From assembly GCA_013177935.1 (NCBI GenBank), contig JABLXZ010000002.1:1-64000 (forward strand): DNA of 64,000 nucleotides, read 5' to 3'. Below are positions 17,978 through 34,043 of this stretch, one piece after another. The DNA is from a candidate division WOR-3 bacterium (GTDB lineage Bacteria > Hydrothermota > Tepidihabitantia > Tepidihabitantales > Tepidihabitantaceae). The notes below the pieces were generated by a model. The model saw nothing but the letters and a program-made list of their open reading frames with translations, ran no database searches and was not told where the DNA came from. Position numbers and translations under genes: made by a program. Every line of letters begins with the position of its first letter. Position 1 is the stretch's first letter.

Positions 17978-18006
17978 AAAGGGCGTCCGAAAACCGGACG
18001 CCCTTT
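17978..18006 (-). terminator. Rho-independent terminator of the selenoprotein gene
   Basis: A perfect 12-bp stem (AAAGGGCGTCCG and complement) with a 5-base loop, then a T run on the minus strand (17975-17980). It ends the gene whose stop is at 18021. Confidence 0.85.
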
Positions 18007-18020
18007 GAAACCTGTTTCCG

Positions 18021-18806
18021 CTATCGCAAAACCGACGCCTTCATCCGCACACTACTGGCACCAGCAGCAACCTCATAAAAGTAAAGACCGTTCGGTACCG
18101 GCTTACCCGCATCATCGGTCAAATTCCAGACCACCGACTGATTACCCATCGGTAGCGTACCGGAAAACACCGTACGCACCAGTTCCCCGGAAGCGGCATA
18201 GACCCGCACCGTAACTGGACTTGCGGCGGGCAGACTGAAACTCAGCCTTTGACTCATTCCAGCCGGGTTCGGGAAAACGCGCACCAGCTCTGGTACCGCT
18301 GACCTCTTCTCCTCCTTCACACCGGTCAGATAGGGTTCAATCCAGCTCCGGATGAGTGCCTCATTAAAACCTTCCATCGACCCGACCACGATACCCGCGG
18401 TATCAATCACATAGTTCAGCGGGATGTAGCCATTCATCCGATAGGCACTCCAGGCAGGACCACCATCACGGAAAAACGGATACGAGTACTGCCGGGCATA
18501 AACCTTCACCACCGAATTCATATCCTGAAACAGATTGATTGCCAGTGGCACATAACCCTGAGCGCCATACTCATCATACATTGCCTGAATTCGCGGCAAC
18601 TCCGCGAGGCAACCTGGTCAGGTGGACTGCCAGAAAAAGAGCTGGACAACCTGCCCCCGGTACTCCGAAGGCACAAGATGTGTAACCCAGGCGGTGTCCG
18701 GAATTGAAACATCCGGAGCGGGGTCGCCGGGTTGCGGCCAAGCCATTACCAAAGCCGGTGTCAACAGCAAAAACGCCATTACACCAACCTTCACGAACTT
18801 CAACAA
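18021..18806 (-). CDS. Secreted thioredoxin-fold selenoprotein (TlpA-like, UxxC) with C-terminal sorting domain
   Basis: The frame is continuous from 18806 to 18021 if the in-frame TGA at 18618-18620 is read as selenocysteine. The sequence around it is QVVQLFFWQST-U-PGCLAEL. A TlpA/ResA thioredoxin has W-x-x-W-C-x-x-C here, so U replaces the first catalytic Cys and the second is kept. A cis-Pro motif follows (GYIPLNYVID). A hydrophobic signal (VMAFLLLTPALVMAW) precedes the fold. A Por-type sorting domain (VFPNPAGMSQRLSFSL, VPNGLYFYEV, MKASVLR) ends it. A SECIS-like stem-loop lies directly after the TGA. The start is TTG at 18806 or 18803, because the GGAGG at 18812-18816 is placed for these and overlaps the upstream GTG. 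Probably an extracytoplasmic redox enzyme. Confidence 0.85.
18581..18612 (-). promoter_or_regulatory. SECIS-like stem-loop after the Sec codon
   Basis: On the minus strand, five bases after the TGA, comes TTGCCT-CGCGG-AGTTG-CCGCG-AATTC-AGGCAA. The outer 6-bp and inner 5-bp stems are both perfect, with a 5-base bulge on the 3' side and a 5-base apical loop with G at position two. The loop begins 16 nt after the TGA, within the spacing expected for bacterial SECIS elements. Confidence 0.85.
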
Positions 18807-18833
18807 ACGCACCTCCTTTTTGGTTCTACAACC

Positions 18834-18861
18834 ATTCTACTCGCAACTTTACCCATGTCAA
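18834..18861 (-). promoter_or_regulatory. Promoter of the selenoprotein gene
   Basis: TTGACA, a 16-bp spacer and TAGAAT. A ~20-nt leader carrying AAAAAGGAGG follows. Confidence 0.75.
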
Positions 18862-19008: not shown

Positions 19009-20412
19009 TTAGTTTCTGAAAGCGGAAAGAATTTTCAGCGCTTCCTCTTCGCTCTTTTCAATGGCAACTTCTACTGCCTTTTTTGCTGTCTCTAACAATT
19101 CCTTTGCTTTTCTTCTTGCCTCATGAGATTGCTGAACTAACTCGGCAATTTTTTGCTGGGTTGATAGACGAAGAAAAGGGATTTTTAATTTTTTAACTTG
19201 CTCTGGTTTCCAATGAAGTATAACAGAGCCTCCACAATCCCTTTCTATCTGCATTTTTCCAACAATCGAATTTATACATAAGGCAAGATACTCTTTATTT
19301 ATTTGGCTTTCGTTTATTTGTAAGTTTAAGATACCGCTTGAAATTATTCCTTCTATTTGTTCTTTTACAACATAAGCAATCCCAGGGGTTGCATCCTTGG
19401 TTAAAAGAAAATCGCCTTGTTTGGGTTCATAAGTTCCTTTTAATTGCTGGTATAACCCTTCACTTAGATATTTTTGGTCTCTGTCAGTAAATCCGTTTAT
19501 AGAAAGATTGCTTACTCTAATAAATGGCTTTCCTTCGTCTTGGTAATTCTCGCTTCCAACTTCTATACCTTTTTGAATGCTCAAAATAAATTTTCTTAAG
19601 GGTAGCATCTCTATACTTTTTTGTCTCAATTTCTCAATCACCTCTTCATACGCTGGCTGAAAATATTCGGCATCAATTCTATGGGCAGTGAAAGCATCGG
19701 AAAGATTAGCAATATATGTTTTTTGATATTTTGGCTTGAAGTCTTTTAACCCGAGTTCTTCTAAAAAAAGGTTTTCGGCTTTGAAGTAGAGGGAGTAAGA
19801 ATCCTCTATGAATTTTTCTATTTTTAAAAAACACGAACCTAATTTGTTTTGTACTTGTTTAGATATAACAGGTATTTTGAACGAACCTATTTGAAAAGAA
19901 TTTAAATATGCTTGAGCATTACCTGTAACAAATCTAAAAATTTGCAATTGCCCATACTTGGAAAGAAAAAACAATCCAGCATAGTAAGGCTTAATACTTG
20001 GGTCTAAAATTCTAACTCTTGCTATATTTTGATTTATGTTACCTTCATTAATACTATCTTGGACAATAGCTATCTGACCAATTGTTCCTCCGACCGCAGC
20101 AAACAATATATCACCAGGATGAATAGCAGATTTTTTATTTTGTTGGTGAAATTCATTTTTGCAAAAAACAATTTCAGCTTTATTTACCATTCCTATGGCA
20201 AAATTTTGAGACCTGACAAAAGGTATTCCTTGTTCTTCAAAAATTCCTCCAGGCGGAGTTGTGCCAAAAGCAACATCAGAAATAGACTTGAGCGTTCTTG
20301 CGTTAAATTTATGTATGGTTTTAAGATTATTAAAGATAGGTTTGTAATACTCCGCATCTATCCTTTTTGCCCCCTCAAGTTCTGATAATTTTATAATGCT
20401 AAATACCGCCAT
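19009..20412 (-). CDS. Restriction-modification specificity (S) subunit
   Basis: The ATG at 20412 (MAVFSIIKLSEL) has GGAG at a suitable distance, 4 bp after the methylase stop; the frame is open further upstream but without support. The ~467-aa protein has two target-recognition half-domains, each starting with a similar R-I-D-A-E-Y-(Y/F) segment: GAKRIDAEYYKPIF and AHRIDAEYFQPAYEE. Each is followed by a coiled-coil spacer, the second being QQKIAELVQQSHEARRKAKE. This is the usual HsdS duplicated layout, so it recognises a bipartite site. Base composition is visibly AT-rich compared with flanking genes, as in the adjoining methylase gene, which suggests joint transfer. Confidence 0.88.
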   Translation of the reverse strand: MAVFSIIKLSELEGAKRIDAEYYKPIFNNLKTIHKFNARTLKSISDVAFGTTPPGGIFEEQGIPFVRSQNFAIGMVNKAEIVFCKNEFHQQNKKSAIHPGDILFAAVGGTIGQIAIVQDSINEGNINQNIARVRILDPSIKPYYAGLFFLSKYGQLQIFRFVTGNAQAYLNSFQIGSFKIPVISKQVQNKLGSCFLKIEKFIEDSYSLYFKAENLFLEELGLKDFKPKYQKTYIANLSDAFTAHRIDAEYFQPAYEEVIEKLRQKSIEMLPLRKFILSIQKGIEVGSENYQDEGKPFIRVSNLSINGFTDRDQKYLSEGLYQQLKGTYEPKQGDFLLTKDATPGIAYVVKEQIEGIISSGILNLQINESQINKEYLALCINSIVGKMQIERDCGGSVILHWKPEQVKKLKIPFLRLSTQQKIAELVQQSHEARRKAKELLETAKKAVEVAIEKSEEEALKILSAFRN

Positions 20413-20416
20413 TTTA

Positions 20417-22837
20417 TCATCTCCAGAAATCAAAACCCTGTTCTTTAGCAAACTTAATGAATGCTTCTGCGATTTCGTCTAAATCATGGTCAATTACTGG
20501 GTGTCCGTGTCTATCTAAAGCAATGGAACCATCAGGGTTTTTCTTGTACCTATACTCTCCGCTTTCGTTCTTAACCGGCTTCTCATTAACCGCAAAGAAA
20601 ATCGGGTAGTCCAACTCTTGCATCACCTTTCCGTCAAGCCAGTATTTCTTAAATGCTTCTGTAATCCTTTCATCATTTATGACTAAACTTATCTGACCCG
20701 CCAATGTCCTTTGAGAAATTTCTTTTATGAGTTTATCTATCTTCTTTCGTAATGTCTTTATTTCCTTTTTCAATTCTGCTTTTCCTGTAGCATCTACACT
20801 TTGGAGTTCCTCCGCTTTTTCTGTTAGAACTTCTTCTAATTCGGACTTCTCCTGAACCAAAACAGCAAGGGGTTTCTTCCCTTCGTTTTCTTCTTCTTGC
20901 CCTTCTATTTCTTCAACCTCGCTTTCCTCTCGTGGTAATTCCTCAATGTCTTCTCTGCTTTCAAAATAGGATTCAAGGAAAGAGTTGAGTTCTTCTGGTA
21001 TTTCATCTTCCTCTACCGAACTATCCCAAGTTATGTTTTGATATTGCTCTTTTAGGTTTTCCCAAAATGCTTCCCATTCACCCTCGTATTTTACCCTTAT
21101 CTGCTGAATCTCCTCTTTTTCTTCATCCGTATATTTTTGTAAGAACAAAACGCTTGTTTTTGTCCCGGTATGTGGTTTGAATGTGTTAACATGCAAGCCT
21201 ACCACCGCTAAAATCCTTGCCTCATCAATAACAAATCTTCTGATGTATTCAGCATTTGTATTGTTAAGTAACCCTTGAGGTAAAACAATAGCCATCCTTC
21301 CACCAGGTCTTATAAATTGTAAAGAGCGCTCCAAAAAGAGAATATGCCTGCCGATTTTGTTTACCCATCTTCCGTTTTTCTCAGCCAGGCGATAGAGTCT
21401 TAAAATATCTCTTTCCTTTACCGTGCCAGCAAATGGTGGATTGGTCATTAAGACATCAAAGTCAAAGTATAAAAAGTTCTCTTGATTTTCGCGGTCTCTT
21501 TCGGGGTTGTCAGGGAATCTTAACAGTCTGCCTCTTAAGCCCGATTCTGTTTCATCTTCCCATGTATGAGGTGCTAATGAGTTGTCTTTATAGACATGGG
21601 ACCTTCCATCTCCTACGATTAAGTTAATTGCCTTGGCAATCTTTACCGCCTTTTTGGCAAAGTCAATCCCGTAAATCTTAGTTTGCGCGAAATTTCTTGC
21701 GTTTTCAGGCAGGGGTTTTCCGCTTATCATTCCGCCTGCAACCCACATCACCGAATGCAAGAGAAATCCCGCAGAACCACAGGCTGGGTCAATGACGAAT
21801 TCACCTGCTTTAGGATTGAGCATTTTAACGACCATATCTTCAACTGGACGCGGGGTAAAAAATTGCCCTTCTTTCTTTTTGGAAACCTGTGGTATTAGAT
21901 ATTCAAAAGCCTCATCGATAATGCGTAAATTAGAATTAAACAACTTTATTTTTTCTAAAAAAGAGACACAAACTTTTAAATGGTCATTTCTCAACTCAAT
22001 TTTATCTGTTGGCTCAAAAACCCCCTGCCATTCTCTTTTTGCGCCTTCTAACAGAGTTGTTACTGCTCTTTTTACCTGTTCGGAGTTTCTGTCGCCAACA
22101 AAAAATTCTAACTGATAAGATGAATTATTGATTCCTTGCCATTCATCGTAGAGTTTGGCGTAGATTAACTTAAAAATTTCCTCAAATGGGTCCACTCCTG
22201 CATTGCCTAAAACAAGTTCCTCTAAATCCAGCAATATCTTTTTAAGGGTAGTTTTACCCTTTTTTAATTCATCATTTTCTTCAAGCCAGTTAATACTCCA
22301 TCTTTCAGTTAAAATATCTCTCAGTGTTTCTGTAACCTTTGGTAGTCTTGGAATCTCCACAAAGATATTTGGTTCTTCGCGATGAAGCCTTATCATTTCA
22401 TTCCCATTAGACCAAACACCAATCGGTGCGCCTTCTGCATTACAATAACTCTTTAATTGTTCCAAGCCTGCGGTTCTTTGAGGCCTTTTTACCTCAAAGA
22501 TTATATATGGGTGTTGTAAATCATTGTGAAGTACAACTATATCTGCCAAACCAGAATCTCTTGAGCCAAAATAAACCACCCTCTCAACATCCACTCTTTC
22601 TCTTGGATAATTATATTCATTCAATAATCTATAAATCCACAGTTGTCTGACGATTTCTTCAGGGTTTGCCCCCCTGTATTTATCTTTAATCTGGCATCTG
22701 ATATAAAACCTTCCATCCCGTTCTATAATCATTGCTTCCACAGCGTTTATCTCATCAGGCGTGAAAAGAGACAATCCATGTTTCACATCTGAAGCGGAAA
22801 AAATCTGGTTTATTTTCGATTGTTGAGTCTGGGACAT
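20417..22837 (-). CDS. Fused nuclease-adenine methyltransferase subunit (type IIB/BcgI-like or type I-like)
   Basis: 806 aa. Residues ~55-170 resemble the HsdR N-terminal nuclease domain, with a PD-(D/E)xK site: Asp99 in GLADIVVL, then Glu115 and Lys117 in IIFEVKRP. The N6-adenine methyltransferase follows, with QFFTPR (325-330), motif I DPACGSAGF (350-358) and motif IV TNPPF (465-469). A charged coiled coil lies near 640-710. There is no helicase motor and no separate HsdR gene nearby. Nuclease plus methylase in one chain beside a separate S subunit is the BcgI plan (known); assignment here is inference. A long leader (~155 nt) precedes the ATG at 22837, which has AGGGGG upstream. Confidence 0.85.
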   Translation of the reverse strand: MSQTQQSKINQIFSASDVKHGLSLFTPDEINAVEAMIIERDGRFYIRCQIKDKYRGANPEEIVRQLWIYRLLNEYNYPRERVDVERVVYFGSRDSGLADIVVLHNDLQHPYIIFEVKRPQRTAGLEQLKSYCNAEGAPIGVWSNGNEMIRLHREEPNIFVEIPRLPKVTETLRDILTERWSINWLEENDELKKGKTTLKKILLDLEELVLGNAGVDPFEEIFKLIYAKLYDEWQGINNSSYQLEFFVGDRNSEQVKRAVTTLLEGAKREWQGVFEPTDKIELRNDHLKVCVSFLEKIKLFNSNLRIIDEAFEYLIPQVSKKKEGQFFTPRPVEDMVVKMLNPKAGEFVIDPACGSAGFLLHSVMWVAGGMISGKPLPENARNFAQTKIYGIDFAKKAVKIAKAINLIVGDGRSHVYKDNSLAPHTWEDETESGLRGRLLRFPDNPERDRENQENFLYFDFDVLMTNPPFAGTVKERDILRLYRLAEKNGRWVNKIGRHILFLERSLQFIRPGGRMAIVLPQGLLNNTNAEYIRRFVIDEARILAVVGLHVNTFKPHTGTKTSVLFLQKYTDEEKEEIQQIRVKYEGEWEAFWENLKEQYQNITWDSSVEEDEIPEELNSFLESYFESREDIEELPREESEVEEIEGQEEENEGKKPLAVLVQEKSELEEVLTEKAEELQSVDATGKAELKKEIKTLRKKIDKLIKEISQRTLAGQISLVINDERITEAFKKYWLDGKVMQELDYPIFFAVNEKPVKNESGEYRYKKNPDGSIALDRHGHPVIDHDLDEIAEAFIKFAKEQGFDFWR

Positions 22838-30848: not shown

Positions 30849-33800
30849 TCACCGCACCACCGTGACCTTCTTTACCCCGCGATAACCGGCATCGGTTTCA
30901 TACCGCATGAAGTAAACACCGGGTGCTAAACTGCCGACCGAACTCTTTCCTGCCTTACCGAAATTTATTGAATGCATCTCTGCCACCACCCGACCTGTGA
31001 TGTCCACTATCCAGACCCGGACGCCTTTTGCACCGCTCCCGCTTGCCAGTTCTGCTAAATACCTCTCGAGCATCACCGGGCTTGACACCGTCGGTATTGA
31101 CTTAACGCCCTTTTCCTCACTCGCTTCGTCCATAACCCCGAGCCGCGGCACTGTGGGTCTTGAAGCCAAACCCATTGCTGGTACATAGCGCCACATTTCC
31201 AAAGTCTTGTTGCCTTTCAGGGCAAAAAACACACCTCCACTAAAATGGGCGATATCACCGCCGGCTTTAACCCGCTTCCTTTTGCCGGTCGAACCGAGCT
31301 GGGGAATGGTGTCAAGCTCCTCCCAGCGGGCTTCAGCCGTCCGATAACACCAGAACTCCGCGGTATTACCACCTTTCAGGGCGTAAATAACACCGTCGTA
31401 ATACGCGGCACCACCACCATCCTTGGACTTTTTACTCTTACCGGTCCGCGTGCTCTGCCGCGGAATGCCGGGCAGGGGTGTTGTACTCCAGCGGTTGCTC
31501 TCGATATCAAACACCCACAACTCCTCGTTGTTTGCCCGATGGGCATAGATGTTGTTAACCCCATCGTAAACCAGCCAGGAACCCTCTTTCCACTTTCCAA
31601 TCGGCGCATCTGGAAGCACACTCCACTCACCGGTTGCGGTGTTGTAACGCATAAAATCGCTGTAATAACCCTTTAACAGGTACAGATAGCCGGTGTCGTT
31701 TTTCGTTAGATATACCATATCGCCGCCGCCCTTCACCGCCTTACCACTATTACCCAGCGGAATATCAGATAGCTGTTCCCACCGGTCTTCAGTTGCGTGG
31801 TAACACCAGAAACCCCTGGTATTATTACCTTTAACTAAATATACCTTGCCTGCACCAGCCACAACACCCCGCGCACCCTTTTTCGGCAACCTTTCCTCTC
31901 TTCCCGGCAAAATCGGCGATAGGATACGCCAGGTGTCAGTAAACGGCTCATAGGCATAAAAGTCGCCTGTTTTGTTGCCTTTGCCCGCGTAAATTACACC
32001 CGAATTTTCATCCGCGGCAATCCAGCCCCCATCTTTAACCGCCGCGCCGGAAGGTTGGGCCGGCATTGGCACCACCTCGTGCCAGCCCGCCTGCCATACC
32101 GGCGTCACCCAGAACTCACCAGTTTTGATGTTGTTTGCCTGCACCTGGTCAAATGGATAATAGACACTGCACCGCACCGCCCATCTGCCACCGGTGTTCA
32201 ATGAACAGGGCGCAAATGTGACAAGCAGTTCGGAATTGCCTGGGGGTTGGTTCACAACATTCTGTTGAGCGCTATAAACCGGTTGCCCTTGAGCGTTGTT
32301 AATCACCAACCACATCTGATATGTCGCATTCACATTGCCCGGATTCTGGGCTGCTACCACGGGCGTAATTACACTTCCTGCCGGATACCGGTCGGTTGGC
32401 ACCACAATCCTTGACACCGTCACATCGCGCACCCGTACAAAAACCGCACCGGTGTCCCGGTCATTTTCCGGCACCACATCGTTCATCAGTTCGGTTGAAC
32501 AACTGACCACCAGACTGCCCCTTTCCCGGGCATACCAGCGCGGGAAAATCAACTCGTTTTCGGTGTTGGGCTGATGAAAATATGCCGTTTCCACCTGACA
32601 GTAATTTGCGCCGATTCTGAGCCGGACCGGATAACTCTCCATCCTACTACCGTAGTTGAAAAGTTTCACCACCGGTGTCACACCCATACCCGAATCTACC
32701 ATCCCAACCGGTGCCAGAATCGCTGTGCAGGCAACATCCTTTGCCACAACATCACAGGACCCGATATAGGGTCGGAGGTCTTTACCCGTAACCACAATCT
32801 GAAGCGAGCCGGTGTTTATCGGATTGATTTCAAAAATCGCCTGGCCCTGACTGTTCGTGCTGGTGTACTCATAGACGGTTGAATCCATTGATATACAGAC
32901 CACCGCATTCGGTACCGGTGCGCCACCCGCCCGCACTGTTACCACAAAAGTCTGAGGCTTTCGCAGGATAACCGAATCGTGTTCCACCTGTAAGGTTTTT
33001 ACCGGTCCGGTCCAGACATTGAGCTCTGGGTCGCCCAACAGGTTCCATTCAAGATAGCGCACCGAATCTCCATAAATTGAATCAACCCAGAACTTGCCGC
33101 GCAGTGCCGCCTTTCCCAATCGGTACTCACCCTCTTCGTACAGCGAATGGAAAAAACCCCGAAAACAGGCGCTCCGGTACCGGGAAAGGTGGTTACCCGA
33201 ACGGGTTGTTCCAAAAAACGCAATCGCACCGCCCAGCGCTCCTGGTGAACCGGCACGCACAAACCGGTCACCGTACATCGACTCACCCGGTGCCAGAGTT
33301 ATCGTAGCGCAGGTGCCGCTCACCACCACCGGCATTTTCGCACCATTTCCCCAGCCGGTGGCATCAACCGCATTAAAAGGCGAGTACCAGGTGCCAACAC
33401 CGGTACCCCGATAGGTAATGAAAAGCCTGCCATCGTGCGCTGCCGCATTCACCTCCCGGCTCGAGTCACCATAAAGGTCGCACAAACTCTCAGCCAGTGC
33501 AAAACCCCTGTCCACCCAGTACTGGCGTAAAATCCGCGAATCCTTTTGATAAAAAGAGTCCGGTGGTACATCTTCCCGAACCACAGTAGTTCCTTTGTAA
33601 AACCAGAGTGTATCAATGTCCGCAGGTGGATTTTCATACGCCAGGACCTTGGCAACAAATGTGCTGCAGTCGCGCACCGTCTGCGCCGGGAACCTTCCCA
33701 CCGGGATTTCCATCAGGTAATCCCCGCTCATATCACCGTAGTAGTTGTCGTTGTTGTTGGTGAAGCTCGGGATATGAGTCGGACCACCCAGAAGTAAAAC

Positions 33801-34043
33801 ATACTCGGGTGGAATGTCCCAGTTGTTCCAGGCATTGCGAATGTAACTGCGAATTGAGGCGGTGTCGGTTCCGGTTTCACTCGTCGGCACAACCTTTGCT
33901 AACATCCCTTTTGCGGTCTTCCAGCGGGCAAGGGGAAAGGCGGCAGGAACAAAAGAGTCCGGGGTAATTATCAAATAACGGGCGCCTTCCTCAGCCAGCA
34001 AGGAAAAAACACCCAAGAGCAGAAATACAAAACCTTTTCGCAT
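30849..34043 (-). CDS. Gingipain-like (C25) protein with six-blade Kelch-like region and sorting domain
   Basis: 1064 aa with a signal peptide (~1-17). Residues ~20-345 match the peptidase C25 fold: YVLLLGGPTHIPSF, DYLMEIPVGRFPA and the Cys motif VVVSGTCATI (Cys245). The catalytic-His position, usually GHG, reads YRGTGVGTW (Thr214), so activity is doubtful. Ig-like modules span ~345-640. From ~650 to 960 there are six blades with KGNKT-like turns and W-Y cores (e.g. GGNTAEFWCY, KGNKTLEMWRY). The last ~75 residues (VWIVDITGRVVAEMHS, LAPGVYFMRY, VKKVTVVR) form a Por-type sorting domain. The promoter is at 34108-34135, with a strong ribosome binding site. Confidence 0.85.
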   Translation of the reverse strand: MRKGFVFLLLGVFSLLAEEGARYLIITPDSFVPAAFPLARWKTAKGMLAKVVPTSETGTDTASIRSYIRNAWNNWDIPPEYVLLLGGPTHIPSFTNNNDNYYGDMSGDYLMEIPVGRFPAQTVRDCSTFVAKVLAYENPPADIDTLWFYKGTTVVREDVPPDSFYQKDSRILRQYWVDRGFALAESLCDLYGDSSREVNAAAHDGRLFITYRGTGVGTWYSPFNAVDATGWGNGAKMPVVVSGTCATITLAPGESMYGDRFVRAGSPGALGGAIAFFGTTRSGNHLSRYRSACFRGFFHSLYEEGEYRLGKAALRGKFWVDSIYGDSVRYLEWNLLGDPELNVWTGPVKTLQVEHDSVILRKPQTFVVTVRAGGAPVPNAVVCISMDSTVYEYTSTNSQGQAIFEINPINTGSLQIVVTGKDLRPYIGSCDVVAKDVACTAILAPVGMVDSGMGVTPVVKLFNYGSRMESYPVRLRIGANYCQVETAYFHQPNTENELIFPRWYARERGSLVVSCSTELMNDVVPENDRDTGAVFVRVRDVTVSRIVVPTDRYPAGSVITPVVAAQNPGNVNATYQMWLVINNAQGQPVYSAQQNVVNQPPGNSELLVTFAPCSLNTGGRWAVRCSVYYPFDQVQANNIKTGEFWVTPVWQAGWHEVVPMPAQPSGAAVKDGGWIAADENSGVIYAGKGNKTGDFYAYEPFTDTWRILSPILPGREERLPKKGARGVVAGAGKVYLVKGNNTRGFWCYHATEDRWEQLSDIPLGNSGKAVKGGGDMVYLTKNDTGYLYLLKGYYSDFMRYNTATGEWSVLPDAPIGKWKEGSWLVYDGVNNIYAHRANNEELWVFDIESNRWSTTPLPGIPRQSTRTGKSKKSKDGGGAAYYDGVIYALKGGNTAEFWCYRTAEARWEELDTIPQLGSTGKRKRVKAGGDIAHFSGGVFFALKGNKTLEMWRYVPAMGLASRPTVPRLGVMDEASEEKGVKSIPTVSSPVMLERYLAELASGSGAKGVRVWIVDITGRVVAEMHSINFGKAGKSSVGSLAPGVYFMRYETDAGYRGVKKVTVVR

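What the first reader, a model, noticed from the sequence alone, without database searches (positions are those of the whole stretch)
18021..18806. Secreted selenoprotein: TlpA-like thioredoxin with Sec in the active site and a sorting domain
An in-frame TGA (18618-18620) falls exactly at the first catalytic Cys of a thioredoxin fold (WQST-U-PGC), with the second Cys, a cis-Pro motif and downstream fold intact. The flanking frames join without any shift. Immediately downstream is a perfect bulged stem-loop (18581-18612) with its loop 16 nt after the TGA. The product also carries an export signal and a Por-type C-terminal sorting domain. An exported, sorted selenoprotein of this design is not one I know to have been described. 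Redox activity outside the cell is inferred.
Basis: partly seen in the sequence, partly recalled or inferred. Interest (0 to 1): 0.92.

Follow-up and report, generated by a model that had tools for sequence, protein, structure and literature searches.

The report
Secreted selenium-dependent thioredoxin-like protein
A bacterium of the uncultured WOR-3 group carries a gene whose apparent stop codon is almost certainly read as selenocysteine, giving an exported redox protein with a cell-surface sorting tail; the redox module is of a known kind, while its use in surface-sorted proteins across this phylum seems not to have been described.

Summary
On the minus strand, TGA 18618-18620 interrupts one continuous ORF (18021-18806) at the first active-site position (UPGC) of a TlpA/ResA-like AhpC-TSA domain. 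The TGA is kept in 38 homologous genes from 23 genomes, from same genus to same phylum. The genome encodes SelA, SelB, tRNA-Sec (UCA) and SelD; a second SelD is itself TGA-containing. The hairpin starting 10 nt after the TGA (6 bp, AGUUG loop 16 nt after the TGA) meets the published bSECIS model. It pairs in 100% of cells over 28 distinct sequences, and all six pairs show double-sided changes.

Cys homologues exist. One lies in a genome with no SelA and no SelB above cut-off, and has lost the hairpin. The product has a signal-peptide-like N-terminus and a C-terminal domain above the T9SS type A sorting cut-off; the genome has SprA and 15 C25 peptidases.

The redox module belongs to a catalogued kind (Prx-like thiol:disulfide oxidoreductase, PF00578, UxxC). 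The exported, sorted, paralogue-rich version across WOR-3 was not found in the literature searched. Verdict: a genuine selenoprotein gene, new variant of a known kind. Location and activity are inferred.

The parts
18021..18806 (-). Full selenoprotein ORF read through TGA (TTG start at 18806-18804 or 18803-18801), 260-261 aa
   Evidence: same-frame homology on both sides of the TGA; dN/dS well below 1 on both sides: 0.061/0.26 before and 0.051/0.51 after against the same-genus orthologue
18618..18620 (-). In-frame TGA read as selenocysteine, position 1 of the UPGC active site
   Evidence: TGA conserved in 38 homologous genes of 23 genomes
18609..18611 (-). Resolving cysteine (Cys66) of UPGC
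   Evidence: invariant in alignments A2 and A3; one divergent paralogue, L080, lacks it
18591..18607 (-). bSECIS hairpin: 5' arm 18607-18602, loop AGTTG 18601-18597, 3' arm 18596-18591
18581..18612 (-).
   Evidence: present here; only 61% of outer-stem cells pair in relatives
18384..18731 (-). AhpC-TSA / ResA-TlpA-like thioredoxin-fold domain
   Evidence: Pfam PF00578 E 1.5e-14; PF00578 in the genome scan; PDB relatives DsbE, ResA, StoA
18420..18422 (-). Proline codon (Pro129) of the IPLNY motif, the expected cis-Pro
   Evidence: invariant in A2; cis geometry inferred from the fold family
18741..18806 (-). Predicted signal peptide (LLKFVKVGVMAFLLLTPALVMA, cleavage before WPQPGD)
   Evidence: direct reading; similar N-termini in relatives; no signal-peptide program was available
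18045..18278 (-). C-terminal Ig-like domain: T9SS type A sorting domain / FlgD_ig
   Evidence: TIGR04183 27.3 bits (cut-off 23); FlgD_ig 42.5 bits; predicted beta-sandwich matches PorU, PorZ and FlgD
18834..18861 (-). Promoter-like site TTGACA-16-TAGAAT
   Evidence: 11 of 12 matches
18812..18816 (-). Shine-Dalgarno GGAGG
   Evidence: AAAGGAGG also before the orthologues
17978..18006 (-). Intrinsic terminator directly after the TAG stop, 3' of the read-through ORF

Best explanation
The gene encodes a selenoprotein. SelB with Sec-tRNA(UCA) and the hairpin 10-27 nt downstream recode UGA 18618-18620 as Sec. The product is exported through the inner membrane by its signal peptide and, from its C-terminal domain, sent on by a T9SS-like system to the outer membrane or cell surface. 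There the UPGC thioredoxin fold acts as a thiol:disulfide oxidoreductase: selenolate attack by Sec63, resolution by Cys66. Shown computationally: the Sec codon, the SECIS element, the machinery and the domains. Inferred: actual Se incorporation, export route, final location, substrate and electron donor. The confidence given is for the Sec reading; for surface delivery by T9SS it is about 0.6.
For: In-frame TGA at the same active-site position in 38 genes; selA, selB, selC and selD present; second SelD contains TGA in ATCAGUASK, so the genome recodes UGA elsewhere too. Hairpin covariation and agreement with the bSECIS model of PMC13188914 section 5 (spacing 16 nt, 5-nt loop with G at position 2 followed by U, MFE -17.1). 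Purifying selection on both sides of the TGA; terminator after the distal stop. The Cys homologue in G008 lacks the hairpin, and G008 has no SelA and no SelB above cut-off. TIGR04183 matched by 20 of 21 family members; SprA 452.5 bits (cut-off 200) and 15 C25 peptidases in the genome.
Against: No direct proof of Se incorporation. G029 carries the U form but shows no SelA and only a partial SelB at a contig edge. G012 carries a Cys form but keeps SelB and tRNA-Sec, so the Sec/Cys to machinery match is not perfect. Asp and Ser forms exist in duplicates. Pfam's Por_Secre_tail stays below its cut-off here. The structure model is poor for the thioredoxin part. TGA is the commonest ordinary stop in the window (24 of 47 ORFs), so recoding must depend on context.
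Confidence: 0.93

Rival explanations
1. Selenoprotein as above, but periplasmic: the C-terminal Ig-like domain is a structural or anchoring module and not a T9SS sorting signal.
For: The tail scores higher with FlgD_ig (42.5 bits) than with TIGR04183 (27.3), and is below Pfam's Por_Secre_tail cut-off. T9SS in this phylum is inferred from SprA and C25 homologues only.
Against: TIGR04183 above its cut-off here and matched in 20 of 21 members. About 60 places in the genome resemble the protein, nearly all in the tail region, mostly in long open frames. The fold matches PorU and PorZ.
Confidence: 0.3
2. Pseudogene: the TGA is a nonsense mutation or sequencing error and only a fragment is made.
For: A 192-aa ORF from 18599 is what a standard gene caller would list.
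Against: TGA conserved in 38 genes, purifying selection on both sides, hairpin covariation.
Confidence: 0.01
3. UGA is read as tryptophan or another ordinary residue by a variant code or suppressor.
For: The ORF is open under such codes.
Against: TGA ends 24 of 47 window ORFs; relatives have Cys rather than Trp at this position; the genome has a complete Sec system.
Confidence: 0.01
4. The enzyme is a peroxide- or other small-molecule-reducing Prx-like enzyme and not a protein disulfide oxidoreductase.
For: The best Pfam family is AhpC-TSA/Redoxin; Sec often favours peroxide reduction (general knowledge).
Against: The Prx TxxC/U motif is absent (here T directly precedes U, motif UPGC). The nearest curated models and structures are ResA, StoA, DsbE and TlpA.
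Confidence: 0.25

Closest known systems
Prx-like thiol:disulfide oxidoreductase selenoproteins (PF00578, UxxC/UxxU; PMC13188914 Table 1, PMC9312934)
   Same: AhpC-TSA domain, UxxC motif, downstream bSECIS
   Different: Here fused to a C-terminal T9SS/FlgD-Ig tail, in WOR-3, with several paralogues per genome in some relatives
UGC-containing TlpA/ResA-like selenoproteins (NF041054 WAxxUGC_long, NF053656 TUGYCR)
   Same: ResA/TlpA-like fold with Sec replacing an active-site Cys
   Different: UxxC instead of UGC or UGYC; scores far below both models' cut-offs
ResA / StoA / TlpA / DsbE exported thiol-disulfide oxidoreductases
   Same: Fold, export, active-site position, cis-Pro region
   Different: Sec instead of the first Cys; extra sorting domain
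T9SS type A cargo proteins (e.g. gingipains; TIGR04183)
   Same: Signal peptide plus C-terminal Ig-like sorting domain; SprA in the genome
   Different: Cargo is a selenoprotein, outside Bacteroidota
TonB-dependent receptor selenoprotein (FCYXU motif, NF049945; PMC12013277)
   Same: A predicted selenoprotein of a family that sits in the bacterial outer membrane
   Different: Unrelated protein; shows that Sec beyond the inner membrane is not unprecedented

Membership tests
Bacterial selenoprotein | In-frame UGA at a redox position, homologous sequence on both sides | tested here: met
Bacterial selenoprotein | SECIS hairpin within 16-37 nt, 3-9 nt loop with G in its first two positions, 4-16 bp stem, MFE <= -7.5 | tested here: met
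   6 bp, AGUUG, 16 nt, -17.1 kcal/mol; covariation
Bacterial selenoprotein | SelA, SelB, SelD and tRNA-Sec in the genome | tested here: met
Bacterial selenoprotein | Cys-containing homologues | tested here: met
   L049 and L053, plus distant CxxC homologues L086-L088
Bacterial selenoprotein | Selenium actually incorporated | not testable with these tools
   needs mass spectrometry or 75Se labelling
Prx-like thiol:disulfide oxidoreductase (PF00578, UxxC) | PF00578 domain over cut-off with UxxC | tested here: met
   54.5 bits against cut-off 26; UPGC
Peroxiredoxin (TxxU/TxxC) | TxxC/U peroxidatic motif | tested here: not met
   WQSTUPGC: T directly before U
WAxxUGC_long / TUGYCR selenoproteins (NF041054, NF053656) | Score over the curated cut-off and UGC/UGYC motif | tested here: not met
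   20.5 of 300 and 18.5 of 100 bits
T9SS type A cargo | C-terminal sorting domain over cut-off | tested here: met
   TIGR04183 27.3 against 23; but Pfam PF18962 17 against 27
T9SS type A cargo | Signal peptide | tested here: inconclusive
   typical by eye; no predictor available
T9SS type A cargo | T9SS machinery in the genome | tested here: inconclusive
   SprA over cut-off and C25 peptidases; PorK/L/M/N and PorV not tested

The most novel reading that the evidence does not exclude
WOR-3 bacteria display a family of surface-sorted seleno-thioredoxins on the cell exterior: several architectures, up to about six Sec paralogues per genome, and two alternative SECIS positions in the same gene region. 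They would carry out selenium-based redox chemistry outside the cell, a use of selenocysteine not previously described.
Probability: 0.45. Interest if true: 0.65.

Novelty: new variant of a known kind. Interest (0 to 1): 0.52.

Why it matters
It adds an unstudied phylum to the Sec map with a clade-wide, duplicated selenoprotein family that standard annotation truncates. It also raises a testable question: why spend selenocysteine on proteins destined for the cell surface, and what reduces them there. The covarying SECIS set, and the Sec to Cys/Ser/Asp replacements, give a compact natural experiment on gain and loss of Sec.

Tried and rejected
Sequencing error, nonsense mutation and pseudogene: rejected by conservation of TGA. 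Variant code: rejected. The outer bulged stem as part of the SECIS: not conserved. SelA presence against Sec/Cys state gave Fisher p 6e-5 (22/23 against 0/5). I do not lean on it, because G012 (Cys form, no SelA found) still has SelB and tRNA-Sec, and G029 (U form) lacks SelA, both probably through assembly gaps, and because related genomes are not independent. The AlphaFold model was poor outside the C-terminal domain (mean pLDDT 47), so fold matches are used only for that domain. Literature searches combining selenocysteine or selenoprotein with WOR-3, Stahlbacteria or type IX secretion found nothing relevant; the library lacks most subscription journals.

Full report
OBSERVATION. The minus-strand ORF 18806-18021 is continuous except for one TGA at 18620-18618. 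The TGA replaces the first Cys of a CxxC-type active site (FFWQST-U-PGC-LAELP). A GGAGG ribosome site and a promoter-like TTGACA-16-TAGAAT precede it, and a strong intrinsic terminator (18006-17978) follows directly after the distal TAG stop. The transcription unit therefore appears to cover the whole read-through ORF.

CONSERVATION OF THE TGA. Searching 199 related genomes found close homologues in which the frame is again open except for one TGA. I extracted them and confirmed that the TGA falls on the same residue: 38 U-type genes in the tree set, from 23 genomes including this one. The same-genus orthologue is 90% identical and evolves under purifying selection on both sides of the TGA (dN 0.061 / dS 0.26 before, 0.051 / 0.51 after). 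Most named relatives from the genome collection are candidate division WOR-3 bacteria. In the tree, Cys (two close genes), Asp (one) and Ser (one, TCA) states sit singly among Sec genes. This suggests they derive from Sec, though the root is not fixed.

SECIS. Starting 10 nt after the TGA, the 6-bp stem with a 5-nt loop (AGUUG here) forms in every one of 28 distinct sequences. All six pairs show changes on both sides (28 cells), while every shuffle and slid control is far lower. The hairpin meets the bSECIS rules in PMC13188914, read. The family-f19 genes (8 in G076 and G087) lack this hairpin. Most of them have a different one, around GCCA-AGGT-TGGC, with its loop 24 nt after the TGA, within the published spacing range. 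The SECIS has therefore probably moved within homologous coding sequence. The Cys gene L049 has lost the hairpin. L053, also Cys, retains it, as a recent replacement would.

MACHINERY. SelA (567.6 bits), SelB (383), tRNA-Sec with UCA anticodon (Rfam 74.2 bits; ARAGORN) and SelD are present. A second SelD next to selB itself contains TGA at its catalytic position (...ATCAGUASK...). Of 22 relatives with the U form, 21 show SelA (one of them, G113, split in pieces below cut-off) and G029 does not. The Cys-only close relative G008 has no SelA and no SelB over cut-off. G012 (Cys form) has SelB and tRNA-Sec but no SelA in the assembly.

PROTEIN. Domain scans give AhpC-TSA (54.5 bits), with ResA, StoA, TlpA and DsbE as nearest named relatives. 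The C-terminal 80 residues pass the T9SS type A cut-off in NCBIfam, and 20 of 21 aligned family members match that model. The structure model is reliable only for this domain; its best matches include PorU, PorZ and FlgD. The genome encodes SprA (452.5 bits, cut-off 200) and 15 C25 (gingipain/PorU-type) peptidases, and carries about 60 places that resemble the protein, nearly all in the tail region. The N-terminus reads as a signal peptide. Relatives show further architectures: thioredoxin domain with a long middle region and an FlgD_ig tail (about 470 aa), and thioredoxin domain with HYDIN-type Ig domains, one of them with a Por tail.

MECHANISM. Shown by computation: recoding signal, machinery, fold family, tail. 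Inferred: selenolate attack on a disulfide by Sec63 with Cys66 resolving; export and surface sorting; substrate and reductant unknown. A periplasmic location and a peroxidase-like role are the main live alternatives.

NOVELTY. PF00578 UxxC selenoproteins are catalogued (PMC13188914 Table 1; PMC9312934), and a TonB-dependent receptor shows that outer-membrane selenoproteins are already predicted (PMC12013277). I found no description of T9SS-type selenoproteins or of Sec use in WOR-3, within an incomplete library. It is a new variant of a known kind, with very strong support for the Sec reading and moderate support for surface display.

Noticed in passing
window 19009-22837: Type I restriction-modification genes (specificity subunit 19009-20451, N6 methylase with HSDR_N domain 20417-22837) lie between the M23 peptidase gene and the selenoprotein gene. 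In relatives L041-L045, L110 and L111 the ParA/ParB/M23 genes (as far as the locus reaches) lie close by the selenoprotein gene, so this looks like an insertion.
   Followed up: partly
L017:1501-2409 (G000:C3:106492-107400): Second SelD, adjacent to selB, is itself a selenoprotein gene (ATCAGUASK); the genome also has a TGA-free SelD at C2:440593.
   Followed up: partly
L078, L079, L081, L082, L083: Family-f19 members use a different SECIS-like hairpin (loop 24 nt after TGA) instead of the one 16 nt after TGA: the SECIS seems to have shifted within homologous coding sequence.
   Followed up: partly
L070:1989-2858 and L083:3943-5034: Tandem or neighbouring paralogues have Asp (GAC) or Ser (TCA) at the Sec position; possible redox-dead duplicates.
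   Followed up: partly
L080:1085-1612: Paralogue with U but Ser in place of the resolving Cys (USGS).
   Followed up: no
L084:1128-1949: Divergent paralogue in G016: C-terminal part of a longer ORF with UPLC, an FlgD_ig tail and its own 6-bp GC hairpin; very long branch in the tree.
   Followed up: no
G012 and G029 assemblies: G012 has SelB and tRNA-Sec but no SelA; G029 has a U-type gene, a half SelB at a contig edge and no SelA: probable assembly gaps or partial loss.
   Followed up: partly
window 30849-34043: C25 (gingipain-like) peptidase with Kelch repeats, one of 15 C25 proteins in the genome.
   Followed up: no
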